From positions 11,233,601 through 11,297,600 of the forward strand of contig CM073322.1 of the NCBI GenBank assembly GCA_037043015.1: DNA of 64,000 bases, in the 5' to 3' direction. Made by a program: the position numbers and the translations under genes. Below the pieces are notes generated by a model. That model saw nothing but the letters and a program-made list of their open reading frames with translations, made no database searches and was not told the DNA's origin. This stretch comes from Bryum argenteum (taxonomy: Eukaryota > Streptophyta > Bryopsida > Bryales > Bryaceae). Shown here piece after piece: positions 3,261-50,829 of this stretch. Each line of letters starts with the position of its first letter. Within the stretch, counting starts at the first letter, position 1.

Positions 3261-3763
3261 ATGGTAGCCAACGGGTAGTGTACCACAACTTCCTGCTCAA
3301 TCACCCGTTGTGCCAGCTCTCATTGCCAGATTCACTAGTAGCTTAGAATGCAATCCTCGTATGCTAAATTGCAATTAAGGAAAGAGGTTCAGTCTATGAG
3401 ATTGCAGACTTGTTATCTTTCAAGAAGAATTATTCATAAGAATCCTCCTAGGCTGTATTCAGTCACATCCGAGCGACCATTGCCATGGTTGGATTACTAA
3501 TCATGAATCGCATGGTACACGGTTCAAGAGATGATCCAGGATTGCATCGATGGATAGAACCTATCTGAGTTTAATTTGTGGCCTGCAGGAACATTGCGAA
3601 CAACGGTGGGGTACGTCCTCGTCCACCTCCACCAGCGCAGCAGAATGTGCAACTACTGCAAGCCCCGATGGATCTCGCACTAGACTGGCTGTGCGATGTT
3701 CCTGAACCGAGAAAAAGCGTGACCGAGTCAGTAATCTGGCCCAAGCTTCCCAGCTCCGACTGA
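3261..3763 (+). CDS. DVPEP-family microprotein, copy 1 (type A)
   Basis: The function is unknown and I do not recognise the family. Exon 1 is 3261-3274 (ATG GTA GCC AAC GG), followed by a GT-AG intron 3275-3588, and exon 2 is 3589-3763; the product is 62 aa. Residues 1-11 are Asn/Gly-rich (MVANGNIANNG), then a short PRPPPPAQQN linker, then the conserved block LALDWLCDVPEP and RKSVTESVIWPKL, ending PSSD. There is no signal peptide or membrane segment. The exon choice is supported because the same phase-2 junction joins frames in six other copies. A second intron begins at 3769, 6 nt past the stop; the conserved untranslated exon follows (about 3890-4120) with AATAAA at 4117-4122. The Trp/Leu/Asp-rich tail could be a short binding or activation motif; that is inference only. 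Confidence 0.75.
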
Positions 3764-4254
3764 TCAAGGTAGGAACACCCAGTCTCCTCATAATTGCTCC
3801 TGCTCCCTATACTTCTTTTCGCAGTGGCCAAGAACTTTCTTTAAAACTCGTTGTAAATGCTCTGAACTTCGACCTTGTTCTTGTGCTGATAGCTGGAGAA
3901 CATCATGGGGTCTTTTGCAGACTTTGATTGCCATGATTGTGCAGCCACTCGAAGTGGAAGCTACCTGGGAGTATGGAGGAGCTAGCGAGTGGCTTTCTGA
4001 GACGAAGTGTGATCACATAGGCAATATTGATAGGTCCAAAGCATGCTTGTTTTCGAACTGCTTGGTTGATGCCAGAAGCTTAATTTGAAATCTTCTGTGC
4101 ATACGGTTTGATAAGCAATAAAAAAAGAAAGTGAATAATTTGGATCCATTTTCTTACTGGTGCTTACAGCGACACGAATACAAACGTGAAGCTTGTGGCG
4201 CAAGTCTCGTCACTGGTATATATATGACTACTATCCCGGTCCATAACGCAAGTT

Positions 4255-4340
4255 CTGAGATAGTTTGAAGTTTTGTTTTGAGATAGTTTTGAGTTGGTTT
4301 TGAGATAGTTTTGAGTTAGTTTTGAGATAATTTTGAGGGA
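4255..4340. repeat. Short tandem repeat (ttttgagatagttttgagtt)
   Basis: About four imperfect copies of a 20-24 bp unit containing ttttgagatag lie in the spacer behind copy 1. Confidence 0.7.
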
Positions 4341-4544
4341 GTGAGGGACGTCAAGGCAGCCCGAAAGTTCACAGTAATCTACCAGTCCTGAAATAGCCCA
4401 ATCATGCACTCCTTGTGAATGGCGACGGCACTACAGGAGGTGAAAGTCGGCATCAGAGCGAGCTCAACCTTGTCGAGCTCCGCGAGGCGTTGGGGTGAAT
4501 TTTTTAATCCTTTTTCTGCCATGGTCTTAACTCCTTAACGTTCT

Positions 4545-4892
4545 GTGACTTCTATGATGTCTATCTTCTCGCAGGATCTCTGCACAGCTGCAGGCCTCGT
4601 GTGCATGAACTTCTCGAAGCAACAACACGAGCAGCGGCGAATCATCTTCAAACCGCCACCAGGAGCCCAAACATCCGGGGAGCTACTTCTCGGGGAAGCC
4701 GTTTCTTGGCTGTCGACAACGATTCACGAGGGTGAGTCGTTTCTGTTCGTGGAGCGTGCGAATGGTCGTCTAGAGAACACTGCCAGGTTGATAGCACTCA
4801 ACATTTGGATCGATTCCGAAAGCTTCGTGGATGTGGTGACGAGGATCAGAAGGGGCGGAGGGAGTCTTCTGGTGTATCCCGAATTATCGTGA
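4545..4892 (+). CDS. Hypothetical protein, possible exon of an unrecognised gene
   Basis: I do not recognise this protein. A 115-codon frame runs across a good splice acceptor (ttctcgcag at about 4575), so the first codons may be intron. The central part, LVCMNFSKQQHEQRR then IIFKPPPGAQTSGELLLGEA, is followed by GESFLFVERANGRLEN and IDSESFVDVVTRIRRGGG. A diverged second version occurs at 5391-5771, broken by a frameshift near 5485, and the LVCMNFSK-encoding start is repeated in tandem at 5041-5390. Retention of FLFVER and WIDSESF in both versions suggests former or present coding function. It lies between microprotein copies 1 and 2 and is not related to them. Confidence 0.35.
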   Translation: MTSMMSIFSQDLCTAAGLVCMNFSKQQHEQRRIIFKPPPGAQTSGELLLGEAVSWLSTTIHEGESFLFVERANGRLENTARLIALNIWIDSESFVDVVTRIRRGGGSLLVYPELS

Positions 4893-5040
4893 ATTTGCTC
4901 TGCCTCCGTTGGGCGAGGATTGTGTGTGTTTTATCTGGAATTTGCTTTGGCTGCGTTGGGCGAGGAACGCGTGTGTTTGCTTGACACCGTTGATCACACC
5001 GTGAACCCTCAAACCCTATGACGTTCATGCCCACAGGTTG

Positions 5041-5400
5041 CGGCAGGCCTCGTGTGCATGAATTTCTCGATGCTACAACACAAGCAGCGCCTGGTCATTT
5101 TCAATCCACTATCTTAGACTTCCCGTCAAGTTCGAAGGGTTCCTGCTCTGCACAGCTGCAGGCCTCCTGTGCATGAACTTCTCGAAGCTACAACACCAGC
5201 AGCTGCTGGTCATCTACAATCCACTATCTTCGACTTCCCGTCAAGTTCAAAGGGTTCCTGGTCTGCACAGCTGCAGGCCTCGTGTGCATCAAGTTCTCGA
5301 AGCTACAACACGAGCAGTGGCTGGTCATCTTCAATCCACTATCTTAGACTTCCCGTCAAGTTCAAAGGGTTCCACAACTCGTGTGCATGAACTCTTGGTC
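5041..5400. repeat. About 115-bp tandem repeat derived from the hypothetical gene
   Basis: Units starting near 5041, 5158, 5273 and 5383 each begin with gcaggcctcgtgtgcatgaa or a variant, and the first three run to aaagggttcc. The unit is the start of the exon at 4575, so the gene's 5' part has been amplified locally. Confidence 0.8.
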
Positions 5401-5771
5401 GCTACAACACGAGCAGCGGCTAGTCATCTTCAAACTGCTTCCGGGAGCTCAAACTTCCCGGGAGCTACTTTCGGGGAAGCCTTTATTGGCTCTCGCACCT
5501 GATTGAAAACGACGGGGAATTGTTCCTGTTCGTGGAGCGTGAGAATAGTCGTCTTATTGAGCACTGGGTTGATAGCACTCAATGGATCGATTCCGAAAGC
5601 TTTATGAATGTAGTGACGAGGATCAGAAGAGGCGGAGGGAGTCTTGACAGAGGTTTATCCGGAATCTGCTTTGGCTCCGTTACTCCGTTGGGCGAGGGTC
5701 GCGTGTGTTTGCTTGACACCGTTGATCATACTGGAGGGGTCGTCGATGTTAGGGATCAACTGAGAAGTTAA
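5391..5771 (+). pseudogene. Second, frameshifted copy of the hypothetical gene at 4545
   Basis: The segment matches 4600-4860. It reads QRLVIFKLLPGAQTSRELLSGK in one frame and LIENDGELFLFVERENSRLIEH plus WIDSESFMNVVTRIRRGGG in the next, so a frameshift near 5485 separates the halves. The second half stays open to 5771, ending VVDVRDQLRS just before a TTAA element at 5768. Confidence 0.4.
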
Positions 5772-6166
5772 CCCTTAAACGCCTAGCTATACGGTTTTGG
5801 GCAGCCCAGTATTGGATCACAGCATCTTTTGCACTTGGGCATCATGAATAGTGCACTTTTTGAACTTGGGCATCATGAATAGTGCACTTTTTGAACTTGG
5901 GCATCATGAATGATCCAATCAATGATGAGCTTGCAACCTCCTACAAGTATTGTACAACCCCAACCTACCTACCACAATTCTTTCAAAGCACAAAATCACT
6001 CATACAAATTGTGATTCGAATTGTAAAATTTCACTTTTTGAATGCATCGGAAGAAGGTGACCAGTTTGACATCAAAATATAAGTGAAAAGTTGAGTACAT
6101 TGAGAGCTACAGAGGAGATTCTGTTGGAATATGACCCTCGGATCACCTTCGGCGTTTAAGGGTTAA
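5768..6166. mobile_element. TTAA-bounded TIR element, family II
   Basis: It begins TTAACCCTTAAACGCC and ends GGCGTTTAAGGGTTAA. The interior (gggcagcccagtattggatc; cttgggcatcatgaat, tandemly repeated here; caatcaatgatgagcttg) is shared with 14993-15362 and, inverted, with 25702-26070. No transposase is encoded. Confidence 0.8.
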
Positions 6167-6169
6167 GCT

Positions 6170-6720
6170 CTCCCGGCTTTGCCTGAACGTGGGTTTAGGG
6201 AAGAGAAACTCTCAATGTCTTCATATTCATGGTCCATATCCATCTCAGTTCTTGCATGTTCTCAGATAGTTAGCGAGTGGGTTCCTGTGTTGGAGAGTGC
6301 TCACATGGCATTTTGGATAGGTGCAAAGCATGCTTGCTTTAGAACTGCTCCGTTGATGGTAGAAACTTAACCCCTAAAGGAGAAGCAGTGACCTCTAATA
6401 CGGCCATATCTGTAATTCGTGAGCAAAACATTTTTTGAATTGGATTTTGAGGAATCTAAAATTGTAGGGCCTTGTTCCTAATTGTACAGTTAGATTATCC
6501 ACCAATTTTTATCAATTTTCATTGTACGGATCTTAAGTTATATTAAGTCAAAGTTTTAGTTTCTGCAAAATAAAGTTTTATTTTATGCAATTTTTTATTT
6601 ACTTCGACTTTAATTACCTAGGGGTTAACTGAACTTTTATGTGCGTTCAGTTTGAGGAGCAATAGAAAAGAAAGCAAACATTTGGTTTACTTTCCTTTCT
6701 GCTTCCCCTCTAATTTAGAC
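6170..6720 (+). pseudogene. 3'-end remnant of a DVPEP-family gene, split by a transposon
   Basis: The stretch 6230-6366 (tagcgagtgggt, gtgctcacatgg, gcatgcttg, gatggtagaaac) and 6629-6720 (gagcaatagaaaagaaagc) matches the 3' untranslated exon and poly(A) region of the array genes. The two parts are separated by the TTAA element 6367-6628. No coding exon precedes it. Confidence 0.6.
6367..6628. mobile_element. TTAA-bounded TIR element, family IV
   Basis: Ends are TTAACCCCTAAAGG and CCTAGGGGTTAA. Subterminal sequence (gtgacctctaatacggccatatctg) recurs in reverse at the right end of 48925-49183 and near 36940-36985. It sits inside the 3' exon remnant of an array gene. Confidence 0.75.
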
Positions 6721-8084: not shown

Positions 8085-8575
8085 TGCCAACTATGGCAAC
8101 TAAGAGGTACTAGTGTTACACAACATGTTAACTTCTCAATCACTCTTTGTTCCAGCTCGCATTAGTAGAAGATTCACTAGGAGCATGAAAGGCAATCATG
8201 GTGTACAAAATTGCATGTCAGGAAAGAGGTTCAGTTTGTGACCATAGGCTCATGACATCGCACAGGCAGAACTCTCTGTATCTCACAAGAGAATCATGAA
8301 TCACTCCTAGATTCTACTCAGTCTATGGGTTGCGATCATAGTTGGGAGTATTGATCGTACTCTACCGAGCAAGTATCAATCCTTGTTGGATTTAATTTGT
8401 GGATTCAAGAACAACAACGGCGGGGTCCCTCTTCCTCCACCACCAGATTGCTCAACAATTGCAAGCTTCGGTTAATCTCGTACTTGACTGGCTGGGGGTC
8501 GTTCTCGAACCGAGACAGATTGTGCCCGAGTCAGTGACATGAGAGCTTTGACTAATCACGGTAGAAACACCCAAT
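8085..8575 (+). pseudogene. DVPEP-family pseudogene, copy 2 (type A)
   Basis: The exon-1 equivalent at about 8089 reads ATGGCAACTAAGAG in place of ATGGCAGCCAACGG, and the exon-2 acceptor is AAG rather than CAG (about 8409). Exon 2 starts NNNGGVPLPPPP, but deletions shift the frame and a TAA follows within about 20 codons. The DNA of the C-terminal motif (cttgactggctgg ... gttctcgaaccgag) is still recognisable but out of frame, and the conserved 3' exon is missing. This is a dead copy. Confidence 0.7.
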
Positions 8576-12691: not shown

Positions 12692-13205
12692 ATGGCAGCC
12701 AACGGGTAGTGTCCCACAACTTCTTGCTTAACCACCCGTTGTGCCATCTCGCATTGCCAGGTTCACTAGGAGCTTAGAATGCAATCCTAGTGTGCTAAAT
12801 TGCATCTTACGAGAGTTTCAGTCTATGAGATGGCACACTTTCTATCTTAGTTCCAAGTAGAACCATACGAATCCTCCTAGTTTGTTTTCAGTCACTTACG
12901 AGCGACCATTGCCATGGTTGGAGTACTAACCATGAATCGTATGCATGGTACACGGTTCAAGAGATGATCCAGGATTGCATCGATGGATAGATCCTAATTG
13001 AGTTTGATTTGTGGCCTGCAGGAACATTGGGAACAACGGTGGGGTACCCCCTCCTCCACCTCCACCAGCGCAGCAGAATGCTCAACAAGTGCATGCTCCC
13101 GTAGCGCAGGCGGATCTCGCTCTAAGCTGGCTGTGGGACGTTCCGGAACCGAGAAAAAGCGTGACCGAGTCAGTAATCTGGCCAAAGCTTGAGAGCTTTG
13201 ACTGA
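12692..13205 (+). CDS. DVPEP-family microprotein, copy 3 (type A)
   Basis: An unrecognised family member of 65 aa. Exon 1 is 12692-12705 (ATG GCA GCC AAC GG), the intron is 12706-13021, and exon 2 is 13022-13205. The protein runs MAANGNIGNNGGV, a seven-proline stretch, AQQNAQQVHAPVAQ, then ADLALSWLWDVPEP and RKSVTESVIWPKL, ending ESFD. Splice sites are GT...CAG and the junction is in phase 2, as in copies 1 and 5. A 3' untranslated intron starts at about 13211, only 6 nt past the stop, and ends at a tgacaacag acceptor near 13341. AATAAA lies at 13512-13517. The Pro/Gln linker varies between copies while the last 30 residues do not, so the tail is the likely functional part. Confidence 0.8.
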
Positions 13206-14992: not shown

Positions 14993-15362
14993 TTAACTCT
15001 TAAACGCCCATGGGGTGTGAAATGGGCAGCCCAAAATTGGATCACAACATCCTTTGGACTTGGGCATCATCAATAGTGCACTTTTTGAACAAGGGCATCA
15101 TGAATGCACCAATCAATGATGAGCTTGCAACCTCCTACAAGGTTATGTACAACCCCAACCTCGCTACCACAATCCTTTCAAAGCACAAAATCACTCATAC
15201 AAATTGTGATTTGAATCGTAATATTTCACTTTTTGAATGCATCACAAAAAGGTGACCAGTTTGACATCAAAATATAAGTGAAAAGTTGAGAACAATGAGA
15301 GCTACAGAGAAGATTCTGTTGGAAGGTGACCCCTCGGGTCACCTTGGGCGTTTAAGGGATAA
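14993..15362. mobile_element. TTAA-bounded TIR element, family II
   Basis: It begins TTAACTCTTAAACGCCC and ends GGGCGTTTAAGGGATAA. The interior matches 5768-6166. Its right end abuts the next element at 15359 so closely that they share the junction, suggesting one inserted at the terminus of the other. Confidence 0.8.
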
Positions 15363-17161: not shown

Positions 17162-17649
17162 ATGGCGAGCAACGGGACGGTATGCCACTCATTTTCTACC
17201 TTGTCCGCTTTCTCTTGGTGTGCATGCTCTTTTGTTGACTTTGAAATTGCATAGAGTTCTAGCAACACAGTAGTGCAAGGAGTGATCACAGAAACACTTT
17301 TAGAGGCTGGGGAGTGGTATTTGTTTGGATTCTCCAACCTCGTTTGACATCACTCTGCGTTCTGCCATTGGGACGGAAGAGTAGTCTCAATTGTCGTGAG
17401 ATAGGACCACGACTTACATCAGAATCAGCACTTCGGGTCGGCGAAATTGCATCATCAGATCAGTAGACTAATAAAATTCACTTCGTGGCTTCTCAGAAGC
17501 AATGGCGGGATTCTACCGCCACCGCAGCAAATTGGTCAACAAGTACTACCACAACCACCGCAGTAAATGAACCCACACTGGACTGGCTGTTGGACGCTCG
17601 TGAACCACGAAGAAGCGTGGCCGAGTCGGGAATTTGGCCCGAGCTCTGA
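17162..17649 (+). CDS. DVPEP-family microprotein, copy 4, with altered splice phase (type B)
   Basis: An unrecognised family member, predicted at 56 aa. Exon 1 is 17162-17179: four extra bases (GACG) sit before the only available GT, so the exon is 18 nt and phase 0, not 14 nt and phase 2. Exon 2 is 17497-17649. In the new phase the linker reads as a Ser/Thr/Ala-rich stretch (KQWRDSTATAANWSTSTTTT) in place of Pro/Gln. A deletion before the conserved block then brings the family tail into frame: TLDWLLDAREP, RRSVAESGIWPEL, stop. In the ancestral phase the frame would stop at a TAA in the linker. Either two changes compensate each other, or this is a pseudogene whose tail is open by chance. DVP is changed to DAR, a weakening of the motif. 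Confidence 0.5.
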
Positions 17650-18742
17650 CTGAAATAGGAAGTCCCAATCTCTTCAATATTCATGAGAAATCACGAAGCT
17701 AGTCGTAAATGCCCCAATCTTTCTTCTCGTTCTTGTTCTGACAGCTGCAGGGCAAGGGGTCTTTTGCAAGATTTGTGTACACGTTATTGTGCGCAGCCTT
17801 TGGAATGCAGTTACTCGACGTGGGAACTACGTGGGAGTATTCAGAGGAGCTAGAGAGCAGGGTGTGATCACATGGGCATGGTCGATGTGCTACACTTGTT
17901 TCTAGACTCATGCTTGTTCAGAAAACACTTGATGATTGGCTGATGATGGAAGCATGCCTACAAGTCTTTTGTATACCATTTACTGAGCAGTAAAAAAGAA
18001 AGCAAGAGCTGGAATGTGTTGTGATTTTGGTATTTGATGTATGCTAGGTGCCTTTGATTGTTTCACTCTTGTCTAGAATTTGAGGGGGTTTGCAACATTT
18101 TTTTCTCAAATAGTCAAACCGGCTGGGCAGAGGAACTTGCGCGTGAAATTTCTTCCCGAACCTTGGTCGTGCAGTGGCCACGGACTCGGCATCGTAACAT
18201 TTTGAATCACCTGACGATAAATTACTTACTCACTACATCATAAAATATATACAATCCCCAGAAGCGGCAGTAAGTGAGCTGCAAGTTAGATTCTTGTAAT
18301 ATTCTGCACAATGGCATCGAAGCCGATTCGTGATTTCTCGGGCTATCCAAGGTAGCTATACTTGGCCGACTTCAGTTATTCTCGATTGTTCAATCAATGG
18401 TTACTCGTGGAAGAGACAAGAATGAGTGTGGGATTGAATTTCCACAGCAGATACCCTCAGCGAGAGAACCGGGGGTGGCTGCACCGTCGAAGCGGTGTGA
18501 ACATTGAATAACTGTCTCAGCCATTGAACTACGTCATTGAATCAATGTTTGCCGACTGCAGAAGCTGCAGACATTTCGGAGACACTTCGGATGTTCTGTA
18601 ACGTGCTATAAGTCGTCGTGGTGGCAAATGGATCGATCATCAGCAGGAATCGGAACATATCGGGCGGTTCTGCAAAGTATCGAAAGATTCAGGTTCGAAA
18701 ACGTCTACTTTGCCCGCCCGTACTAGCTTCTGTGGATGTTAC

Positions 18743-19720: not shown

Positions 19721-20159
19721 ATGGCAGCTAACGGGTATTGTTACTCAACATCATGCTTTATTACCAGCCCGCATTGCCAGGTTCACTAGGAACTTCGTAT
19801 GCAATCCGGGTGTGCTAAATTGCATTTCAGGAAAGAGGTTCACTTCAATTCGTGACCGTAGCTTTTGTAAGCGAATCATAAGTTTGGTTTCAGTCACTAA
19901 TTGCGTGCTACCATTGTGCTGGTTGGGAGTACTGATCGCATTTATAGATCCTAATTGGATTCAATTAGTGGCTTACAGGAACAGTAATAACGGTGCTGTA
20001 CCTCCACCACTACCACCAGTGCAGCAGAACGGTCAACAGTTACAAGCTCCCGTAGCAGCGCAGGCGGATGTCGCACTAGGCTGGTTGTGGGACGATCCGG
20101 AACCGAGAAAAAGCGTGCCTGAGTCAGTGATCTGGCCAAAGCTTCAGAGCTTTGAGTGA
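19721..20159 (+). CDS. DVPEP-family microprotein, copy 5 (type A)
   Basis: An unrecognised family member of 64 aa. Exon 1 is 19721-19734 (ATG GCA GCT AAC GG), the intron 19735-19978 is the shortest of the set (244 nt), and exon 2 is 19979-20159. The product begins MAANGNSNNGAVPPPLPPV, continues QQNGQQLQAPVAAQAD, then VALGWLWDDPEP and RKSVPESVIWPKL, ending QSFE. DVPEP is DDPEP here. The 3' untranslated intron opens at about 20165 and closes at tgacaacag near 20295. The poly(A) signal is degenerate (gcaatgaaaa, about 20512). The upstream core promoter is duplicated. Confidence 0.8.
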
Positions 20160-22978: not shown

Positions 22979-23957
22979 TTAACCCCTAAACGTCCCTGGG
23001 GTATTTTTAGCCAAAAACCCATTTTCAAAATAATTGATATAGATGAAAATAAAGATAAGCTATTCAAATCTCAACCGTACAAACTTGTAATAGACTTGTA
23101 GTAGATCATGTGGACCAAAACTTGACTCATGGGACCTCATGGATTGCGAGATCATAACATATTAGTGCGCAAAACAGGCTACAAAATACCCTCATTTTCA
23201 CTTTGAAGTGAAAATACTACCAACATGAAATTTGCAATCAAAAAATCAGCAACTAGAAAGTTGTTCATCTTCATCTCAAAGACACTCTTGTATCAAAAAA
23301 AATTATCAAAAAAAAGTCTTGGCTCAAATAGAACCCTTGTAGTCGTGAAAACTGCCAAAAATTTTACAAAGGAAAAATAGTCCAAAACTAGACCCCTCGC
23401 ACTCAAATCCATGCCTTCTCTTCAATATATCCTTGATTGGGTCAAAGTTTCTACCACTAAAAATAGACTATAATTGGAATCCATCCCAAAAAATAAATTC
23501 AAAATCTAACAGTGGATGAAGGAGATCAAGCTCTTCGGAAATCATCCATTTTTTCACTTTTTCCATCATAGAAACATCATTGCAAAGCCAATACCAAAGT
23601 TATCTAGATCAAAAAACTCTCAACTACAAAGTTGTTGGGGTGCATTCAAATATCAAACCTATGAAAAAAATTTCATGAAAAAGTATTTTAGATTTCACAT
23701 AATTGGCTTGCAATGGTAAAACATGCCAAATGTTTGAAAACCCAAAAACAAAAGCTGCCATCACTAAAATCCACGCCATTTATTCATAATTTATTTTATG
23801 AGTCTGCAATTTTTACCACATAAACTAGACTTGATTTTTGACCTAACACAAGTGATTTCGTCAAAAGCGGAGTTTGGATGAAGAAGTTATGGCTCTTCAA
23901 AGTTTCTGCCCTTCATCCAAAATGTCGTTTTCGACACTAGGGACGTATAGGGGTTAA
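22979..23957. mobile_element. TTAA-bounded TIR element, family III (979 bp)
   Basis: Begins TTAACCCCTAAACGTCCCTGG and ends CTAGGGACGTATAGGGGTTAA; the terminal inverted repeat extends about 20 bp. A second, 5'-truncated copy lies at about 40953-41819. No transposase frame is present. Confidence 0.8.
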
Positions 23958-24723: not shown

Positions 24724-25281
24724 ATGGCAAGCAACGGGTATGGCACTCAATCTTCAGTCTGATGAAAGCCGCCTTCTCTTGCTGTGGGCTCTTCTGTAAC
24801 TCTGAAATTGAATCGTTAGGCCAGATCACACATTCCTCCTGTTGAAATGCACAATTTTCTAGCGATCAGTAGTGTGCGGAGTGATCACAGAGAGACTTTT
24901 CTCGGTGTGCGGATGCAGACGGAAGTAAATTCTGTTCGAACTCTGTGTTCAGCCATTGTGGTGGAGGGAAGAGTATAGAATTTGACATGAGAGGCATCTA
25001 CGATTCAGCAGTTCATTTGCATATGGGGTAGGCGAGATTGCTTCATTCTATCAACACGTTTAATTGTTGAAGACTAATCAAATTCACTTGGCGGGTTTTT
25101 CAGAAGCAATGGCGGAGGTCCTCCTCAAGGACGACAACCACCGCAGCAGAATGTTCAGCAAAGACGACCACCACCACCCCAACAATTGAACCCGCAGGCG
25201 GATCCTGCTTTGGACTGGCTGTTGGATGTTCCTGAACCACGAAGAAACCTGCCCGAGTCGGTAATCTGGCCCGAGCTCTGA
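24724..25281 (+). CDS. DVPEP-family microprotein, copy 6 (type B)
   Basis: An unrecognised family member of 63 aa. Exon 1 is 24724-24737 (ATG GCA AGC AAC GG), the intron is 24738-25103, and exon 2 is 25104-25281. The protein runs MASNGSNGGGPPQGRQPPQ, then QNVQQRRPPPPQQLNPQAD, then PALDWLLDVPEP and RRNLPESVIWPEL with an immediate stop. Compared with type A the linker is richer in Arg and Gln, and the tail ends directly at WPEL. The 3' intron begins at about 25288, and a tgacaacag acceptor ends near 25432. AATAAA is at 25682-25687. A family II TTAA element (25702) sits 15 nt behind that signal. Confidence 0.8.
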
Positions 25282-25701
25282 GTGAGGTAGGAACACTCAG
25301 TCCCTTAAAATCTGCTCATGTTCCATATTCTCCTCTCGTGGCCAAGTACTCGTATATTTCCAAGTGGATTCGGCACAAAATGCACAAAACTCGTCGTAAA
25401 TGCTCTGAACTTTGTTCTGGTTGTGACAACAGGTATATATCGATGAAGGGGTCTTTTGCAAGATCTTGGGGGTGCCAATTATTGTGCACAGCTTTTGGAA
25501 TGCGGCCACTCGAATTGGGAGCTACCTACCTGGGAGTGTAGAGGTGCAAGCGAGTCGGTTTTGTGGTGGAGTGTGCTCACATGGGCATTTTTGATGAGTC
25601 CAGAGCATGCTTGTTTTAGAACTGTTTGAAAAACATTTCTTGCAGGATGGTAATCATTTATCGGTATTTCGTTTGATGAGCAATAAAAATGATAGCAAAC
25701 C

Positions 25702-26070
25702 TTAACTCTTAAACGTCCAAGGTGACCCGAGGGGTCCTTTTCCAACAAAATCTCCTCTGTAACTCTCAATGTACTCAACTTTTCACTTATATTTTGATGT
25801 CAAACTTGTCATCTTCTTCTGATGCATTCAAAAAGTGAAATTTTAGAATTCAAATCACAATTTGTATGAGTGATTTTGTGCTTTGAAAGGATTGTGGTAG
25901 GTAGGTTGGGGTTGTACAGTACTTGTAGGAGGTTGCAAGCTCATCATTGATTGGATCATTCATGATGCCCAAGTTCAAAAAGTGCACTATTCATGATGCC
26001 CGAGTTCAAAAAATGCTGTGATCCAATACTGGGCTGCCCAAATCCGTATAGCCTGACGTTTAAGGGTTAA
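25702..26070. mobile_element. TTAA-bounded TIR element, family II (inverted)
   Basis: Begins TTAACTCTTAAACGTCC and ends GACGTTTAAGGGTTAA; the interior is the reverse of 5768-6166. It splits the 3' flank of copy 6: gatagcaaacc before it and gtttggtctgattt after it are joined as gatagcgaacctttggtctg at 13520. Confidence 0.85.
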
Positions 26071-27239
26071 GTTTGGTCTGATTTCTTTGCTGGTTCTCGT
26101 CAATACCAAACGTGCCTTTTCTTTGTGATTGTAGTGATGCTGATTGTGACCATGATGGTTAGATCGATGTGTTGACTTAGCCTTGTGTTTGACTTGTGGG
26201 ATCACTTCATATGCCTCATGGTGTAAGATTTCTTGTGTTGATGGTTCTAGTGAGTTAGTTTGATCACTTTGTTGCGGATATTACTTTTGGTGTTATTAAT
26301 TGTGGAATTTTTAGGTTTTGAAAAAGTATAGCTCATGAATTTTGATGGATGGTTTGTTTCCAAATGTCATGTTTGAGATATGGTCAAAAGATATATATAA
26401 TGCTTTTTGTACTTGGTTGAGTATCACACTCTTATCACTAGATTTATTAATATTTGCCAAGTTGACATTCACTTACCACTAACCAAAATAATGCAAAAAA
26501 AGTGACGTCCAAAAGACAAGAATTTCTATCATTTTGGTTGTCACTTGTCTCAAGTGGCGATTTGTAGAAATATATTCCATGATTTAGTAGCATTTGATGA
26601 TTTGATGATTGAACTCGTGTCCAAGCAATGCTAAGTCTAGTCCTTGAAGTTTTAAAACATTAGAGCCAAGTCTCCGACCAAAAAATGCAGTTGAGGAAGA
26701 AGAGGATTTTGATTTGGTTTGGTTGTTTAAATTAGACAACAATGATTTTGCTTACAAGCTGAGAGTAGGTAACAAGTGACAACTTTGCAGTATATGGAGA
26801 TTCACAGTATCAAAACATTATAGGGTGTAAAATAAGGGCACCATTCTAGGAACACCTATATATCCAACTTCAAAAATTCACAACAGATCAAAAATAATGA
26901 ATCCATTCTGAATATCCTTCCACTTACTTCTCCCATGCATGAATATTGCTAACAATGTTTTTTTCACAATAGATTTCCTAATATGAAATTTGAGCCATTA
27001 TTGAGCCCTTATACCAACCAATGCAACAAAAGTGGCAATTTACAAAGTGGGTTTAGATTACCATTATTAGGTGTACTGGCTCATCTGCTCAAATTCACTT
27101 TTCAATTACTGCCGTGCTTCCTAGTCAATGCACAGAAGAGCGATGGAGTTGTTCTACAAAGTTATGAGTTTTCTGAATAAGTATGAGAGTTACAAGAGTA
27201 TGAATAAACTCACGTATTTTCAGAATTCAAATACGTACA
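26071..27239. other. 3' flank of copy 6 and AT-rich spacer
   Basis: The first 350 bp continue the array 3' flank (tgtgattgtagtgatgctga, gttattaattgtggaatttt). The rest is AT-rich with no supported gene. Confidence 0.5.
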
Positions 27240-28569: not shown

Positions 28570-29065
28570 ATGTCAAGCAACGGGTATGGCACTCAGTCTC
28601 TTGTCCATATGGATGCGGCTTCTCTTGCTAATTATGTACACCCTGAAATTGCACAATCCTCCTAGCAAAAAGTAGTGTAGGAAGTGATCGCAGCAATATT
28701 TGTAGGTGGAGCGGATTTTGTTTGATCGAATTCCCCAGACCCCTCTCGTTTACTATGTCTGTGTGTCGTGGACGGAAGAGTAGTCTCAATTGTCAGCACG
28801 ACTAGCATCAGCATCAGCAGTTTCTTTGCACTTCGGGTAAACGAAGTTGCATCATTAGATTGATAGACTAATCAGATTCACTTCGTGGCTTTTCAGAGGC
28901 AATGGCGGGGTTCCACCACCACCGCAGCAAAATGGTCAACAAGTACTACCACCACCACCACCGCAACAAGTGAACCCGCGGACGGATCCCGCACTGGACT
29001 GGCTGATGGACGTTCCTGAGCCACGACGAAGCGTAGCCGAGTCGGTAATCTGGCCCGCGCTCTGA
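28570..29065 (+). CDS. DVPEP-family microprotein, copy 7 (type B)
   Basis: An unrecognised family member of 60 aa and a good type B reference. Exon 1 is 28570-28583 (ATG TCA AGC AAC GG), the intron is 28584-28896, and exon 2 is 28897-29065. The product runs MSSNGGNGGVPPPPQQNG, QQVLPPPPPQQVNPRTD, then PALDWLMDVPEP and RRSVAESVIWPAL with the stop directly after. The 3' intron starts at 29071, 5 nt after the stop, and its acceptor (tgacaatag) ends at 29203. The untranslated exon keeps the family sequence gcccattattgtgcacagct. The poly(A) signal is degenerate (gagcaattgagaag, about 29433). There is no signal peptide, so a cytosolic or nuclear product is expected. Confidence 0.82.
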
Positions 29066-33049: not shown

Positions 33050-33405
33050 CCTCTCTTCCTCCTTCCTCCTTCCTCCTTTCTCCTTCCTCCTTTCTCCTTC
33101 CTCCTTTCTCCTTCCTCCTTTCTCCTTCCTCCTTTCTCCTTCCTCCTTTCTCCTTCCTCCTTTCTCCTTCCTCCTTTCTCCTGCCTCCTTTCTCCTTCCT
33201 CCTTTCTCCTTCCTCCTTTCTCCTTCCTCCTTTCTCCTTCCTCCTTTCTCCTTCCTCCTTTCTCCAATCTCCTTTCTCCTTCCTCCTTTCTCCATCCTCC
33301 TTTCTCCTTCCTCCTTTCTCCTTCCTCCTTTCTCCTTCTTCCTTTCTCCTTCCTCCTTTCTCCTTGCTCCTTCCTCCCTCCTCCTTGCTCCTTTCTCCCT
33401 CCTCC
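33050..33405. repeat. 14-bp minisatellite (ctccttcctccttt)
   Basis: About 25 near-perfect units of ctccttcctccttt, degenerating at the right. Because 14 is not a multiple of 3, all frames over it give long repetitive peptides (FLLPPFS on one strand, RRKEEGE on the other). These are artefacts, not genes. Confidence 0.95.
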
Positions 33406-33929
33406 TTGCTAATTTTAGCGTCGGAAGCAACCTTGAGAAGGAGCAGTGAAGCTATTCTACGAGTTTTATGGGTTTTCTGAGGAATAATTGTATAAAATTT
33501 GTCCAAAACAGTAACAGCTTTACAATCAGGTTCATTGAAGTCCATCTTACAGTATTTTGTGTCATATTTTCCTCTGCAGTTGACCAATGTACTTGCCAAT
33601 CAGTTTGTGAGGATGATTAGAGTGAGGATAAGTAGAGTGGATACCATATTCAATAATTGGCTTGAGTACCTTAACTTCTAAGTGGGCTGACTTTTTAAAT
33701 CAGGACAGTAAACAAAATTTTAGTAACTAAAGTTTACAATCTTCTTTCAACCTTTTCCATTCACTTAAATGTGTTGTATGAGGCACTTCAGATATAACAT
33801 CGTGGGAAACAACATACGTAGCAATTGAAGGCCTACTATGAAGTTAATTTATTTTTTTATTACACTTAGTGATCCAAACCTGAGACAAAACTTTAGACTT
33901 TCTTTAAAGTGGGCATATTGAGCTGATAA

Positions 33930-38249: not shown

Positions 38250-38866
38250 ATGTCAAACAGCGGGTACATGGCATTCTACCTCTTTCCTGGTCGCAATGAA
38301 TGCAGCTTCTCTTTCTGTAGACTCGTACGTTTCTGTTGGAAATCGCATTGCCAGGCTTGGTCACACAATCCTCCTGTTTTTAGCAATTCAGTAGTGTGGA
38401 GAGTGATGTTAGGACTATTAGAGTAGAGTATACAATTGCAGCGGGGAGCGTGTTTTGTTCGGATTCCCCAACCCTTCCCCTCGTTTATTCTCAGTCAGTA
38501 TGCCGTCATTGTGGGTGCCGGGGAGGATCGATCCATTTGAATTGAGAGACGCCTACGACTTAGATTAGCACAGCAGTTCATTTGCGTTCTGTGGAGGCGA
38601 TTTTTGCATAGATCTATTGTTAGAAATTGATCAAATTCTGTTCTTGGCTTTTCAGAAGCAATGGCGGGGTTCCTCCTCGAGGACGACCACCACCCCCGCC
38701 GCCGCCTCCACCACCACCCCCGCCGCCGCCGCCACCACCACCCCCGCCTCCGCCGCCGCCACCACCACCGCAAGTGGATCTCGCACTAAGTTGGCTGGGG
38801 GACGTTCCCGAACCAACAAAAAGCGTGATCGAGTCAGTGATCTGGCCCCGAGTTCCAGAGCTCTAA
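38250..38866 (+). CDS. DVPEP-family microprotein, copy 8, with a long polyproline tract (type B)
   Basis: An unrecognised family member of 74 aa. Exon 1 is 38250-38263 (ATG TCA AAC AGC GG), the intron is 38264-38655, and exon 2 is 38656-38866. After MSNSGSNGGVPPRGR comes an uninterrupted run of 28 prolines, then QVDLALSWLGDVPEP, TKSVIESVIWP and a slightly extended end RVPEL. The run is encoded by mixed CCA/CCG/CCC/CCT codons in a 36-bp-like pattern, pointing to repeat expansion followed by point mutation. The Gln residues normally in the linker have been replaced. The 3' untranslated exon follows an acceptor at about 39019, and AATAAA is at 39247-39252. Polyproline II structure is expected for the linker. 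Confidence 0.8.
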
Positions 38867-40952: not shown

Positions 40953-41819
40953 AACTTCAATTAGCTATTTGAATCTCAACGGTACAAACTTGTCATAGAT
41001 CATGTGGACCAAAACTTGACTCATGGACCTCATACATTGCAAGATCATAACATATTAGTGCGCAAAACATGCTACAAAATACCAACATTTTCACTTTGAA
41101 GTGAAAATACTACCAACATGAAATTTGCAATTAAAAAGCCACCAACTAGGAAGTTGTTCAACTTCATCTTCAAGAAACTTTTGCACCATAAAAGTTAATC
41201 ATAAATTTATCGTGGCTCAAATAGTAGCCTTGCAATGGTGAAAACTGCCAAAAATTTTACAAAGGAAAAATAGTCAAAAATTATACCCCTTGCACTCAAA
41301 TCCATGCTTTATTTGTAGGAATATTCTTGATCGGGTCAAGGTTTCTACCACTAAATTAGACTCTAATTGGAATTTATCCCAAAAAATAAAGTCAAAATCT
41401 AATCGTAGATAAAGGAGATAGCTCTTCAAAAATCATCAATTTTTTCACTTTCTTCATCATAGGAACATCATTGCAAAACCAATACCAACGTTGTTAGGAT
41501 GCACCTAAAGATTACACCTATGCAAAAGAAATTCAAGAAGAACTCTTTTTGATTTCACATAATTGGCTTGCAATAATAAAACATGCCAAATGTTAAAAAA
41601 ACCAAAAGACAAAAGCTGTCTTCAATAAAATGCATGACACTTATACATACTTCATTGTATGGCCCAACAAATCTAACCACACAATGTAGACTTGATTTAT
41701 GACCCAACCCAAGTGATTTTGTCCAAAACGGAGTCAAGATGAAGAAGTTACAGCCCTCAAAGGTTTATGCCCTTCATCCAAAATGTAATTTTTCGACACT
41801 AGGGACGTATAGAGGTTAA
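40953..41819. mobile_element. 5'-truncated family III TTAA element
   Basis: The sequence matches 23040-23957 and ends CTAGGGACGTATAGAGGTTAA. The left end is missing where the foldback element begins. Confidence 0.7.
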
Positions 41820-42295: not shown

Positions 42296-42340
42296 CAAAT
42301 TTTCCTTCGTCTTCCTTTCACTTCACTCATTTTCTCCACC

Positions 42341-42845
42341 ATGTCAAGCAGCGGGTATGGCATCCATTCTCATCCTGTATTGCTTGAAATTACATTCTGA
42401 GGCCAGATCACACAATCCTCCTGATGCTAGAAATAGTAGTGTGGGGAGTGATCACAGGAAAATTAGACTAGAGTCTACGATTACAGCGGGAAGGGTGTTT
42501 TGTTTGGATCATTCAACACTCTCGTTTATTCTCCGTCAGGAATAATCGAGTTGAGAACTTGAGATTAATATCCACTCGAAACGAGAGTAGATTAGCATCA
42601 GCAGTTGCAATCGCATTCTGGGTATGCTCAGTTGCATCAGTAGATCAGCACTAATCAAGTTCAATTTGTGGCTTTTCAGAAGCAATGGCGGGGTTCCTCC
42701 CCAACGAGATGGACCACCTCCTCCACGACCACCCACGCCGCCTCCTCCTCCACCTCCACCAGCGGATCCGGCACTAGGCTGGCTGGAGGACGTTCCCCAA
42801 CCGAGGAATAGCGCGGCCGCGTCAACGGTTTGGCCCAAGTTCTAG
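42341..42845 (+). CDS. DVPEP-family microprotein, copy 9 (type B, diverged tail)
   Basis: An unrecognised family member of 59 aa. Exon 1 is 42341-42354 (ATG TCA AGC AGC GG), the intron is 42355-42679, and exon 2 is 42680-42845. The protein reads MSSSGSNGGVPPQRDG, a proline-rich linker (PPPPRPPTPPPPPPPP), then ADPALGWLEDVPQP, RNSAAASTVWPKF. The tail is the most diverged of the intact copies: EP is QP, and SVAESVI is SAAASTV. The Trp residues, DVP and the terminal WPKF remain. The 3' intron starts near 42859 and its acceptor (tgacaacag) ends about 42998. The poly(A) signal is degenerate (gagcaattcttag, about 43231). Confidence 0.78.
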
Positions 42846-44320: not shown

Positions 44321-44616
44321 CTATGTATGATCCGAGGTAGCTTCAAACTCGAGTGGCAGCAATCTAGAAGCTGTGCACAGTACGTAAGGGCACTCAAATT
44401 TCGCAAAAGACCCCTTGATCGCTATATATCTGTTGTCACAACAAGAACAAGCAGCAAGCTCAGAATATGTCCACGAGTATTCTTAGCTCTCATAAAGTAC
44501 ACGTTCAAATCCTCTTGAAAACATACATGTGGTTGACCAGTCTACCAAGAAAATCATTGGAACATGAGCAAACATGAAGTCAGAGGTTTGGTACTCCTAG
44601 TACCTCAATCAAAGCT

Positions 44617-45211
44617 CTAGAACTTGGGCCAAACCACTGACTCAGCCACGCTATTTCTCGGTTGGGGAACGTCCCACAGCCAGCCTAATGCGGGATCCAC
44701 CTGCACTACGGGAGCTTGAGCATTCTGCTGCGCTGGTGGAGGTGGAGGAGGCGGCTGTGGTGGTGGACCTTGCATGAGGAGGAACCCCGCCATTGCTTCT
44801 GCAAAGCCACGCAGTGTGCATTTGATTAGTCTACAACGAGTTGATCTGATAATGCAACTTCGCCTACCCGAACTGCTAATGGTAGTCTTCCTCATTGTCC
44901 TCTCTCATGACAATTGGGACTTACTGCGCTTTCCTCTACCACAGAGACTGAGATTTATCTAGAGGCGTTGGGAATCCAAACAGAACCTAAAGGTCACTCC
45001 CTACACTACAGAATCGCTGGAAAAATATGCATTTCAACAGAAGGATTGTGTGATCTGGCCTAGCATTGCAGTTTCAGAGTGTCCATAAGAGCTCACAGCA
45101 GGAGAAGCGGCATCCATGTGGAGAAGAGAGAGAGAGAGAGAGAGCCGTACCCGCTGCTTGACATGGTGGAGAAAATGAGTTTCGTGAAAGTGAGGATTTC
45201 TGAGAAGCCAT
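44617..45211 (-). CDS. DVPEP-family microprotein, copy 10, read from the upstream ATG (type B, minus strand)
   Basis: An unrecognised family member, the only one on this strand. The usual start (ATG at 45164, exon 1 45151-45164) spliced to exon 2 (44798-44617) puts the conserved tail out of frame and stops at a TAG inside it. Read from the conserved upstream ATG at 45211, exon 1 is 45151-45211 (61 nt) and the junction reads in frame through the whole tail, giving 80 aa: MASQKSSLSRNSFSPPCQAA, EAMAGFLLMQG, a proline run, AQQNAQAPVVQV, then DPALGWLWDVPQP, RNSVAESVVWPKF. A TATA-like CTATAAT (45227-45233) lies only about 20 nt upstream of this ATG, so whether the codon is transcribed is uncertain. 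Otherwise the copy is a frameshift pseudogene. The conserved 3' exon is recognisable at 44330-44430. Confidence 0.5.
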
Positions 45212-45469: not shown

Positions 45470-45720
45470 GTGAGCTGCGCGGAGTTGTCTTCTTCGCCGG
45501 TGGCCCTTTGCTCGACCCTCGGTCGCCCCCACACATTCGACCGAGCGTGTGGGGCAAGCGGAGGTAGCCTAACGGCGCTGGAGCGAGGCTGGCTGCGGGA
45601 TGTTCCCGAACCAAGATGTAGCGTGGCTGAATCAATGGTTTGGCAAGACTCTAGAGCTCTGACTAAGGTAGGAGCACCAATTCCCTTACAATTTGCTCAT
45701 GATCCATATTCTCGGCAGAC
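45470..45720 (+). pseudogene. DVPEP-family copy 11, 5' end replaced
   Basis: No exon 1, acceptor or Pro/Gln linker is present. The tail motif GWLRDVPEP, RCSVAESMVW is in frame with unrelated sequence from 45470 (MSCAELSSSPVALCSTLGRP...), so the recombination point is near 45570. WPKF-stop is lost and the frame runs on. Downstream, the 3' intron acceptor (tgacaacag, about 45819), conserved 3' exon and AATAAA (about 46077) are intact. The copy lies head-to-head with minus-strand copy 10, so inversion or unequal exchange probably removed its 5' end. Confidence 0.6.
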
Positions 45721-47566: not shown

Positions 47567-47830
47567 AAGGCACCAAAAGCCTTGGCTTGGTAGTTAGGGC
47601 TCATGGCCCCCAACAAGGAGGTCGTGGGTTCTACTCCACATGGGGGCGTGGTGCTCACCATCGTAGTCCACCCAACTATGGTGGGGGGTTTTGGACTTCG
47701 TCGTGGGGGTACCTTAAAGACTTTTGTGGGATACCATGTGTGGTATCTCCAAGGCAATAGTGGCTAGGTAGGAACTAGCATAGTGTTCACCCCGAGAGGG
47801 ATTGGTAGTCCTGCCATTGGTGTAATGACC
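47567..47830 (+). mobile_element. tRNA-derived SINE, plus orientation, diverged
   Basis: The sequence agccttggcttggtagttag then ggaggtcgtgggttctactc carries A- and B-box-like motifs at tRNA spacing and matches the SINE at 29939-30296. The 3' half and tail are diverged, and I see no clear target duplication. Confidence 0.6.
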
Positions 47831-48067
47831 AAGGCATATATCCAAGGATAGGTTGGACCAACACTCTCGGGAACACTCTATTCAAACCAGCTTCTATATA
47901 GGTTGGAGTCTATCTTCTCTTCTACCAAGACATGTACTCACTATTTGAATTTGAATTTTCTACATGATAATTTTTCACATGTCTTTTTGAAGTAACAAAC
48001 GGGAATTTTAATTGAAATTCCACATACGCCTTTATGAAAAATCAAGCTTTTCTCTAGGTTTTGCATG

Positions 48068-48503
48068 TAACCTCAATTCCGTTAATTTGGCAATATTCTG
48101 GTAAAATGGCACGATTTAAGGTGGAAAAAATGAAAAAAACAACACTCGTTTTTGTCATTTTTTGACATAATAGAGCAAATTTTTCTGAGCGGCCGCTCAA
48201 AACCAGAGATATTTCTGAGCGGCCGTTGAGAAAAAACTGCCCTTCGACTGAATTTGAAGGTCAAAATTCATCAAATAGTGTGATATTATGGAATTTTTGA
48301 TGATATTACAGAAATTTGTTGATATAATGGAAGATGTGGGTGATATAAAAAAACGTGCCATTTTGCAAGCATAAATCTTTGAGATTTTGAGTTCAAAAAT
48401 ATGCCGGTAAAATGGCACGTTTCAGAAACGCGACCAAATTGGCACAACATGGCTTTGGCAATATGGCACAAGGAATTGTGCCAATTTAACGGAATTGAGG
48501 TTA
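48068..48503. mobile_element. TIR element with TAACCTCAATTCCGTTAA ends
   Basis: Left TAACCTCAATTCCGTTAA-TTTGGCA is mirrored by TGCCAAT-TTAACGGAATTGAGGTTA, about 25 bp each. Inside are multiple short repeats of taaaatggcacg and gagcggccg. No transposase frame. Confidence 0.75.
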
Positions 48504-48924
48504 TGTTCTATGAGGGTGAATATTACATAAACATGTACTTGTCTTAATTGCTTAAGATCAAGGATTTGAAAGGTCATAAATCAAATCTAATTCGAAAAAT
48601 GGATTCTTTGGGCTCTTAAACACTATATTTTCTTTTGTAATAGGGAAAGGAACTTCTCTTTGGACTTCGAATGTTATTGGCTCACAAATAGTGAGGAAAT
48701 AGTCTAAGATTTGATGTATATGATTGTGTACAAGTTGAAAATTAGATCTTATCATTGCTATCCTCATAGTATGTTATAAAATGCACAATTTCAACTTGGC
48801 TCCATTGAAAGAGGGTACTTTTGTTCGTGAAGTGTTGAAATAACGCCTTTGTAGCTCAAGGGGTCAAGGCTAGTGGTCTTTCTAGAAATGTGGCGCTACA
48901 ACTAACGGACCCTCATTTTGTTGT
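48504..48924. other. AT-rich spacer
   Basis: No supported gene or repeat. Confidence 0.45.
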
Positions 48925-49183
48925 TTAACCCCTAATGCTCCAAAGTGCCATGAAGTGCCCATTTGGACATGTTGTTTTCAGAAATAGTTAAAATTTGACT
49001 CAATACATCTCAAGATCCAGAAGGTGAAATATGACAAAACTAGCGCAGAAACTAACTAGACAATCATAAACAAGATCATATGGTTCAATTACTTAGAACC
49101 AAAAAAGAAAAAAAGAAAAAAATCCACGGATATCAGATATGGCCATCTGGAGGTCACCGTAGAGCTGGAGCATTAGGGGTTAA
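48925..49183. mobile_element. TTAA-bounded TIR element, family IV (inverted)
   Basis: Begins TTAACCCCTAATGCTCCA and ends TGGAGCATTAGGGGTTAA; the reverse of the right part matches the left part of 6367-6628. Confidence 0.8.
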
Positions 49184-49438
49184 CAATATTGAAGGGAAGG
49201 CGCATCAGCTGAGGAGCCACCAAGTGTATGGGTGGAAACTTCCCCTTAAGAGTCTGTAACGAGATGCCCCCACCGACACAGGGGTATACCCCCTGCCTCC
49301 CCCCTCACCCCCTCCCCTCCCCCTCCACTTCCACCCTCACAAATTATTTTAATACTTTAGAGTCCTACAGTGGGAGGAAAAGCTATCCAAAGGAATGAGA
49401 CGTTTAGGAGTTGATCTACCCAAACTAAGTTAACATGA

Positions 49439-49745
49439 CCATAAGCTGGTATTGACTTTCATTCAATGAATAACAAGGCGATTATTCCCCCACCCGGCAC
49501 TGTTCCCTAGTCATTCCCCCTATAACCCCTTTCCCTCCTCCCCCTTTATAAGTGGGCTCCCTCCAGTGAAGGATGCAAACACCCCCCTCTTCAATTCCTG
49601 CTACCCCCTCCCCTCCCCTCCTCTTGGCTCCCTCCTCTCCCTCCCCCTCCCCTCCTCTTGTCTCCCTCCTCTCACTCCCCCTCCCCTCCCATTTTCTCCC
49701 CCCTTCTTCCAAGTATAAAAAATCTCGTCTTCGAGCAATGGCTCC
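49439..49745 (+). promoter_or_regulatory. Type B promoter of copy 12, two candidate TATA boxes
   Basis: A weak version of the distal block (accataagctggtattgact, aatgaataacaaggcgatta) is followed by a TTTATAAG (about 49545) with AAGGATGC near 49570. A C/T tract and TATAAAA (49714-49720) come next, with the conserved ATGG at 49738. Confidence 0.55.
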
Positions 49746-49817
49746 TCGCATTTTGTTCTTCGTTTCAGCTTCAAATCACTGCTTCATTCCGCTTTCAAAT
49801 CACTACTTCACTCCACC

Positions 49818-50829
49818 ATGAACGGGTATGAAACCCATCATCGTGCCAATTCTCGTCGTCTAGATTCTTGTTTCTTGTCACTTATTCCATTGCCGATCAT
49901 GTACGATCCTCTCAGTGTTGAAACGCGTACTTTGCAACCGATTCAGTAGTACAGGACGAGTGGGAAGTGTCTCGTGATGATAGGAAATGCGAATGTTTGG
50001 GTAGTGGATTCACAAGTAATCTCTTTAAATTGTTCGCAGTCGCCATTGTGAGGTGGGCGGGGTGTGGTAGAATTAAATTAGCATCAGTAGCTCAGGTAGG
50101 CTAGTTTGCATCAGTAGATCAGTTCGTTTTATTGTGGAAGACTAATCAAATTCACTTCCTGGGCTTTTCAGAAGCAATGGCGGGGGGCGACCACCACAGC
50201 AGCAGAATGCTCCGCAAGGGCACCAGCGGAACGCTCCTCCGCAAGGGCACCAGCAGAACGCTCCTCCGCACGCGCACCAGCAGAACGCTCCTCCGCACGC
50301 GCACCAGCAGAACGCTCCTCCGCCAGGGCACCAGCCGAATGCTCAACAAGGCCAGCAGCAGAATGCTCAACAATTGAACCCGAGTCTCGCACTGAGCTGG
50401 TTGTCGGACCAGCCCGAACCAGGAAGAAACGTGTCCGTATCAATGATCTGGTCTAAACTCGACGAAGGTTTAGACTCTCCCAATACCTTCATTTCTTTTC
50501 ATGGCACGTTATGGAATGACATTGTGATTCATACTGGACAATGTATCTTGTCAAAATCTGCTCAGACAATACCTATGAGTTTGACAGTTTTAACGTTAGA
50601 AATTCAACGCTGTCAGCAAGATCTGTTGATGGTGTTTAATTTTGAGTTTGAGTTTCACGATTGTGTGCAAGATCTGTTGATGATTTTTCCTTTTTTTCCT
50701 TGTGATTTTTCGAGAAACGAAAGAGTATTCTGATGCATTAGGCAGAGGGAATCTGACGTATTTATATTAGAGTGATGATATCAGTGCTAAATTTTGCTTT
50801 CATTTTGTGACAAAACAGGTGCAGCATGA
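49818..50829 (+). CDS. DVPEP-family protein, copy 12, three coding exons and an expanded repeat linker
   Basis: The most divergent intact member, predicted at 104 aa. Exon 1 is only 8 nt (ATG AAC GG, 49818-49825), the intron is 49826-50171, and exon 2 is 50172-50467. The linker is made of 9-residue repeats (NAPPHAHQQ and variants) encoded by a 27-bp tandem repeat, then QQLNPSLALSWLSDQPEP, GRNVSVSMIWSKL. DVPEP is DQPEP and WPKL is WSKL. The usual stop after the tail is missing; the frame reaches GACGAAG|GT, the position of the 3' untranslated intron in other copies. Splicing to the conserved acceptor (acaaaacag, exon 3 from 50819) adds Gly-Ala-Ala and stops at 50827-50829. Unspliced, the frame would continue to 50733. 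AATAAA-like signals lie near 51035-51047. Confidence 0.65.

What the first reader, a model, noticed from the sequence alone, without database searches (positions are those of the whole stretch)
3261..50829. An undescribed amplified family of two-exon microproteins with a conserved ALxWLxDVPEP...SVxESVIWPxL tail
Seen directly: twelve copies in 48 kb share a tiny first exon, a phase-2 intron, a variable Pro/Gln linker and a nearly invariant C-terminal block of about 28 residues ending at or close to the stop. The linker varies freely (PPPP-QQN types, 28 prolines, 9-residue repeats) while the tail changes little. This suggests selection on a short binding motif at a free C-terminus. The Trp/Leu/Asp/Glu-rich tail after a Pro/Gln-rich linker resembles transcription activation or adaptor peptides. 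I recognise no named family. Local amplification of a short gene also fits clusters found on sex chromosomes or at rapidly evolving loci; this is inference.
Basis: partly seen in the sequence, partly recalled or inferred. Interest (0 to 1): 0.92.

Follow-up and report, generated by a model that had tools for sequence, protein, structure and literature searches.

The report
Moss two-exon microprotein gene family
A probable moss genome carries a multi-copy family of very short genes whose proteins differ in a floppy middle but share one conserved tail; a second moss has relatives, so this looks like a real unnamed gene family rather than a chance pattern or a jumping gene, and what it does is not yet known.

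Summary
A profile of the tail DNA finds 12 copies in the window. Eight give a full model: tiny exon 1, GT-AG phase-2 intron, Pro/Gln-rich linker, conserved tail; four are decayed or out of frame with exon 1. The array continues upstream (14 copies, ~61 kb) and the genome holds at least 27 loci on five contigs, 17 with full models that keep the intron. Three 'hypothetical proteins' of the moss Ceratodon purpureus are homologues, so the host is most likely a moss. The tail is under purifying selection (omega 0.40, 2dlnL 25.5 against omega = 1), and its key sites break mainly in broken copies. No significant Pfam or PDB match was found, nor the motif strings in held papers. Best reading: a moss-restricted birth-and-death family of disordered intracellular adaptor microproteins docking through the tail. 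Genes and selection are shown; transcription, moss restriction and the adaptor role are inferred. Sex linkage is not supported: members lie on five contigs.

The parts
3261..3274 (+). c1 exon 1 (MVANG..., phase 2, GT donor)
   Evidence: donor GTAGTG, intron 314 nt
3589..3763 (+). c1 exon 2: linker and tail, to stop
8466..8557 (+). c8 decayed copy (tail remnant, stop inside)
12692..12705 (+). c13 exon 1
13022..13205 (+). c13 exon 2
17561..17659 (+). c17 decayed copy (linker frame stops; donor displaced; exon-1-like ATG at 17162)
19721..19734 (+). c20 exon 1
19979..20159 (+). c20 exon 2
24724..24737 (+). c25 exon 1
25104..25281 (+). c25 exon 2
25433..25610 (+). c25 conserved 3' non-coding segment, probably a 3'UTR exon after a 3' intron (one example of 10 copies aligned)
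   Evidence: no structure support
28570..28583 (+). c29 exon 1
28897..29065 (+). c29 exon 2
38250..38263 (+). c38 exon 1
38656..38866 (+). c38 exon 2 (28-proline run)
42341..42354 (+). c42 exon 1
42680..42845 (+). c42 exon 2
44601..44798 (-). c44 exon 2, inverted copy; tail open but out of frame with its exon 1 (ATG at 45164); in frame with an upstream ATG at 45211
45586..45672 (+). c45 tail remnant; exon 1 and linker not found
49818..49825 (+). c50 exon 1 (MNG)
50172..50733 (+). c50 exon 2; 27-nt minisatellite linker; frame runs 90 residues past the tail motif

Best explanation
Each intact copy is a small protein-coding gene: a first exon of a few codons, a phase-2 intron, and a second exon encoding a Pro/Gln/Asn-rich linker and a tail of about 26-36 residues (roughly LQAPVAxxDxVLSWLxDLPEARxxVPEAVIWPKL). 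In the C2 array an intron probably follows the stop. The family, found only in mosses so far, evolves by DNA-level duplication, dispersal and decay. SHOWN: the exon and splice-site pattern, at least 27 loci, homologues in a second moss, purifying selection on the tail. INFERRED: it is transcribed and translated; the protein is intracellular and largely disordered; it works as an adaptor or competitor. Its tail would dock on a conserved partner through a short helix around LSWLxDL and an IWPxL hook, with the linker as spacer. Copy number would then set dose and linker form would set reach or avidity.
For: Structure: (17 of 27 loci give GT-AG phase-2 models). Homologues with the same tail; P0001-P0003 also keep the N-R residues that straddle the exon junction, but their DNA was not seen. 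P0001 reads MANR-NNGN with nothing between, as a spliced transcript would (inference). Selection: 19 tails omega 0.396, 2dlnL 25.5; 10 C2 tails 0.407, 13.7; deep set of four: tail 0.26, 2dlnL 9.8; N-terminal part plus linker 0.78, 2dlnL 0.95; conserved sites broken in 9 of 24 cells in c8, c17, c45 against 1 of 72 in nine intact C2 copies. Helix: (low confidence; one short helix at the start of the tail).
Against: No transcript or protein evidence for this genome. No partner, domain or solved relative. AlphaFold confidence is low (mean pLDDT 60.1 and 67.3, pTM 0.18). In the C6 cluster the tail alone does not reject omega = 1 (2dlnL 1.3; 0.9). Among close paralogues the linker is as constrained as the tail (U0, c1, c13, c20: 0.41 vs 0.385; C6: 0.47 vs 0.53). 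The tail of c44 keeps all eight sites although its frame does not join exon 1. c50 and C7 extend past the tail.
Confidence: 0.45

Rival explanations
1. The copies are a non-autonomous transposable element or a transposon-encoded peptide.
For: Dispersed to five contigs; other repeats lie between copies; some dispersed copies are fragments with no exon 1 found.
Against: At least 27 loci, 14 of them in one array, from 6-22 first-look candidates per family search (all counts are lower bounds), while a true element in the same window has 40 near-full-length places at 94-100% identity and 7029 candidates. The ORF is under purifying selection and conserved in Ceratodon. No transposon domain.
Confidence: 0.04
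2. The transcript acts as a non-coding or regulatory RNA and the short ORF is incidental.
For: Introns and the 3' segment are about as conserved between sister copies as the coding part; the 3' segment is shared by 11 C2 copies.
Against: omega 0.40 with omega = 1 rejected; tail kept in Ceratodon at protein level; tail sites break where the frame is broken, though not in c44; no Rfam family at gathering score; the 3' alignment has no covariation support (term +0.93, 2 of 24 pairs compensatory).
Confidence: 0.07
3. The tail is an acidic-hydrophobic transcription-activation or coactivator-binding peptide (a nuclear competitor microprotein), a specific form of the adaptor reading.
For: Trp/Leu/Asp-rich short helix followed by Pro-Glu, after a Pro/Gln linker; predicted short helix, low confidence. 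The resemblance to activation peptides is recalled, not tested.
Against: No copy found is fused to a DNA-binding domain (open frames at the matched loci are 29-195 aa); no sequence match to solved peptides.
Confidence: 0.2
4. An autophagy (ATG8-binding) adaptor through the WPxL core, which fits the W-x-x-L pattern (pattern recalled).
For: W-P-x-[LVFI] follows an acidic residue a few places upstream in most tails.
Against: Pro right after the Trp is disfavoured in such motifs (recalled); P0001 has WTDV; F is at the last place in c42 and c44.
Confidence: 0.08
5. A fast-evolving conflict or defence family (decoy for pathogen effectors, or selfish gametophyte locus).
For: Birth-and-death clusters with decayed copies, variable linkers and repeats.
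Against: Purifying rather than diversifying selection over the tail as a whole; sites were not tested one by one.
Confidence: 0.12

Closest known systems
Ceratodon purpureus hypothetical proteins M758_1G099500, M758_1G099700, M758_1G099800 (P0003, P0002, P0004)
   Same: 68-71 aa, N-rich start, linker, tail of the form VLS[WF]LS[DN]LPE..xVxxxVIWPxx; three closely numbered locus tags, so probably also clustered
   Different: Longer first part like the C4/C6/C9 copies, no polyproline expansion; tail ends in FC[DH]
Hybrid proline-rich proteins (HyPRPs) of plants (PMC2216038; only the start of the abstract seen, in the listing)
   Same: Proline-rich variable N-terminal part, conserved C-terminal part, fast diversification
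   Different: No eight-cysteine domain: 15 of 17 models have no cysteine at all; no Pfam match above cut-off; no signal peptide seen by eye (no predictor run)
Motif-only adaptor or competitor microproteins (recalled class)
   Same: Short, probably disordered, one conserved motif
   Different: Partner unknown; no parent domain protein found in this genome

Membership tests
Moss two-exon tail family (described here, with Ceratodon members) | Conserved tail L-x-W-L-x-[DE]-x-P ... W-P-x-hydrophobic | tested here: met
   single departures occur (for example P0003 F for the first W, P0004 N for D, P0001 T for P, c50 S for P)
Moss two-exon tail family (described here, with Ceratodon members) | Phase-2 GT-AG intron after a short first exon | tested here: met
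   17 of 27 loci give full models; broken, shifted or not found in the others. Gene structure in Ceratodon not seen
Moss two-exon tail family (described here, with Ceratodon members) | Transcribed and spliced in this genome | not testable with these tools
   no RNA data held; P0001 looks spliced (inference)
Hybrid proline-rich proteins | Eight-cysteine motif at the C-terminus | tested here: not met
   15 of 17 models have no cysteine; no Pfam match above cut-off
Transposable element or its protein | High-copy dispersed repeat or transposon domain | tested here: not met
   27 loci, half in one array; no domain; contrast. Termini and target-site duplications not looked for
ATG8-interacting (AIM) proteins | W/F/Y-x-x-L/I/V core that binds ATG8 | tested here: inconclusive
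   core pattern present by eye; Pro after Trp; binding not testable here
Transcription-activation peptides | Activates transcription or binds a coactivator | not testable with these tools
   composition only

The most novel reading that the evidence does not exclude
Mosses evolved a private family of motif-only microproteins that dial one conserved cellular hub by dose: many copies share a single docking tail, while the linker is a naturally varied ruler (short Pro/Gln stretches, a 28-proline rod, 9- and 20-residue repeats), a natural library of linkers on one binding motif. The partner would be a conserved hub, such as a coactivator or a target of pathogen effectors.
Probability: 0.15. Interest if true: 0.72.

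Novelty: new member of a known kind. Interest (0 to 1): 0.45.

Why it matters
Lineage-restricted short proteins are hard to call and mostly go unnamed. This one has independent support from gene structure, a second moss and codon-level selection, and it gives a defined ~30-residue motif to use as bait. One tail carried on many linkers is a ready experiment on how disordered linkers affect function. It may also help annotation, since first exons of 8-14 coding bases are easily missed.

Tried and rejected
Single-sequence protein search with the c25 protein: 2 candidates, no hit; an alignment with dispersed members was needed. Structured RNA or 3'UTR element: no support (all 13 weak hits are below gathering scores). 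TATA-like boxes as promoter evidence: 16 of 19 upstream regions have one within 260 nt, but so do 1045 of 2000 random 260-nt stretches of the window, and the copies are not independent, so this is weak; the even spacing of 21-25 nt from such a site to an upstream ATG in eight C2 copies (c1, c13, c20, c25, c29, c42, c44, c50) is the better sign. Upstream ATG as the true start: rejected as default because it is out of frame with exon 1 in c17, c25, c29 and c44 (47 nt away) and probably lies at or before the transcription start (inference); in c44 it was checked and reaches the tail in frame, so that copy may use it. Block 23055-23957 as a mark of the duplication unit: rejected, it is a high-copy element. 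Structure search not run because both models were low-confidence. Weak Pfam hits, none significant: WDR62-MABP1_CC E 0.09 and CR_prot_dom_plant E 0.074, both below the curated cut-off; CR_prot_dom_plant in 2 of 18 members (best 0.062) and Androgen_recep in 1 (0.14). Species not identified: abstracts of PMC12873536 and PMC11704416, passages of PMC10619864 and the listings gave no match to 258.8 Mb. Literature: listings showed no description of the family; one search searched five motif strings and found 0 papers. That covers open-licence PMC papers only.

Controls and limits: the omega = 1 fits kept the tree and kappa of the free fit, so significance is approximate; gene conversion was not modelled. 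Of 27 loci, 19 tails went into; the 8 left out are U-1, c8, c17, c45, the two C6 copies at 9.29 and 9.30 Mb and the C4 copies at 18.87 and 19.516 Mb; c44 and the C4 copy at 19.530 Mb were kept although no exon 1 is in frame or found. The eight sites were picked after seeing the alignments and scored by eye. The count was run with U-1 left out, counted intact and counted decayed (p 8.5e-6, 6.6e-5, 5.5e-6); c44, with no broken site, was left out there, and adding it to the decayed group gives p 8.0e-5.
Full report
OBSERVATION. A profile built from eight tails finds 12 copies in the window; the next hit has E 0.16. The window is G000:C2:11233601-11297600 of a 258.8 Mb, 25-contig genome. Splicing exon 1 to exon 2 by GT-AG gives eight complete models in the window, all with the intron in phase 2. 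The four others are damaged or out of frame with exon 1: c8, c17, c44, c45. The array extends upstream by two copies, U0 (intact) and U-1 (open frame, but its sequence after the tail is not that of the other copies).

FAMILY SIZE. Searches of the whole genome give at least 27 loci: 14 in the C2 array, 7 on C6 (five in 32 kb at 14.40-14.43 Mb), 4 on C4, 1 on C7, 1 on C9 (c8 only). A query from the second moss found no further locus (18 matches, all among the 27). Seventeen of 27 give full two-exon models. In two of them (C6c, C6e) the usual donor is lost and a GT 15 nt further keeps the frame; that is suggestive but unproven. The C4 and C9 copies have longer first exons (MAAAASREDEAPGANR, MTTTAAPVTGGGELEANR) and no long polyproline run (longest 2). 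Like the Ceratodon proteins they may be closest to the ancestral form (inference).

HOMOLOGUES. With alignments, the 5.8-billion-protein set gives five proteins: three hypothetical proteins of Ceratodon purpureus (1G099500, 1G099700, 1G099800), one from a 1,090-nt contig (P0001) and one decayed protein from a 312-kb contig (P0005). No other named plant appeared; that search needs shared 5-residue words, so absence elsewhere is weak evidence. The host is therefore most likely a moss (inference); an aquaporin gene in the window matches aquaporin entries including PIP2-4. No Pfam match is significant (weak hits are listed under Tried and rejected), and no solved structure matches.

SELECTION. For 19 tails omega is 0.396 and omega = 1 is worse by 2dlnL 25.5; for 10 C2 tails 0.407 (13.7); for a mixed set of 11, 0.287 (26.8); for five C6 tails 0.444 (1.3, not significant). 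In the deep set C9, C4, C6a, C6c the tail has 0.26 (9.8) and the N-terminal part plus linker 0.78 (0.95, not different from 1). In U0, c1, c13, c20 it is 0.385 (4.3) for the tail and 0.41 (5.0) for the rest; in C6 0.53 (0.9) and 0.47 (5.1). So the contrast of free linker and fixed tail holds over long distance but not within close paralogues, where the whole protein is constrained. Raw identity alone does not show it: introns of sister copies are 76-89% identical, tails 71-95%. At eight positions shared by C4 and C9, nine intact C2 copies break 1 of 72 and c8, c17, c45 break 9 of 24. c44, out of frame with exon 1, breaks none; counting it as decayed still gives p 8.0e-5.

ANATOMY. TATA-like hexamers lie within 260 nt of exon 1 in 16 of 19 copies, but also in 1045 of 2000 random stretches, so the count is weak. 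In eight C2 copies such a site stands 21-25 nt before an upstream ATG. After the stop, seven of the eight copies examined (U0, c1, c13, c20, c25, c29, c38, c42) have GGTAGGA; c13 has AGTAATA. In six of eight an ACAAYAG acceptor follows 132-152 nt on; the pattern was not found in c1 and fell at a doubtful place in c38. A conserved segment of about 150 nt follows. This reads as a 3'UTR intron and exon (inference) and has no RNA-structure support. In c50 and C7 the frame reads through the matching GT (by eye), so their C-termini are uncertain. Linkers vary by simple means: a 27-nt tandem repeat in c50, a 20-residue repeat in C7 (by eye), 28 prolines in c38.

MECHANISM. No signal peptide is apparent by eye (no predictor was run), and both AlphaFold models are low-confidence with one short helix at the start of the tail. 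The most likely mode is an intracellular, largely disordered adaptor or competitor that binds a conserved partner through the tail. The partner is unknown; an activation-type peptide is the most plausible specific form, an autophagy motif less so. Amplification may tune dose. These steps are inference.

NOVELTY. The family has no name in the collections searched, and five motif strings occur in no held paper. As a kind, lineage-restricted short proteins in birth-and-death clusters are known (recalled), so I file it as a new member of a known kind with a new motif. Sex linkage is not supported: five contigs carry members, and the Ceratodon tags begin with 1G, read here as chromosome 1 (inference; the Ceratodon genome paper was not held). 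It was not tested directly.

Noticed in passing
52380-54680 (minus): Plant-type aquaporin gene (MIP domain in frames 54112-54678 and 53216-53569).
   Followed up: partly
23055-23957 and 40960-41819: High-copy mobile-element sequence: 40 near-full-length places at 94-100% identity to 23055-23957 genome-wide, a lower bound; the second stretch is 80% like the first.
   Followed up: partly
62620-63216 (minus): Open frame with a GPQVIAGSLLVGMTMMHMFMNLEW stretch and no Pfam family above cut-off.
   Followed up: no
33055-33407: 14-nt tandem repeat (about 25 copies) that leaves long open frames on both strands; probably a simple-sequence artefact.
   Followed up: no
61493-61952: Tandem array of 106/210-nt units with long open frames; not analysed.
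   Followed up: no
5765-6167, 15023-15362, 25701-26073: Repeat shared in both orientations by three places between family copies (87-91% identity); looks like a short mobile element.
   Followed up: no
L063, L067 (C6 copies): Usual splice donor lost, yet a GT 15 nt downstream keeps the phase; possible compensated splice-site shift.
   Followed up: partly
44798-45211 (minus, c44): The tail is out of frame with exon 1 but in frame with an upstream ATG across the same intron; possible switch of start codon.
   Followed up: partly
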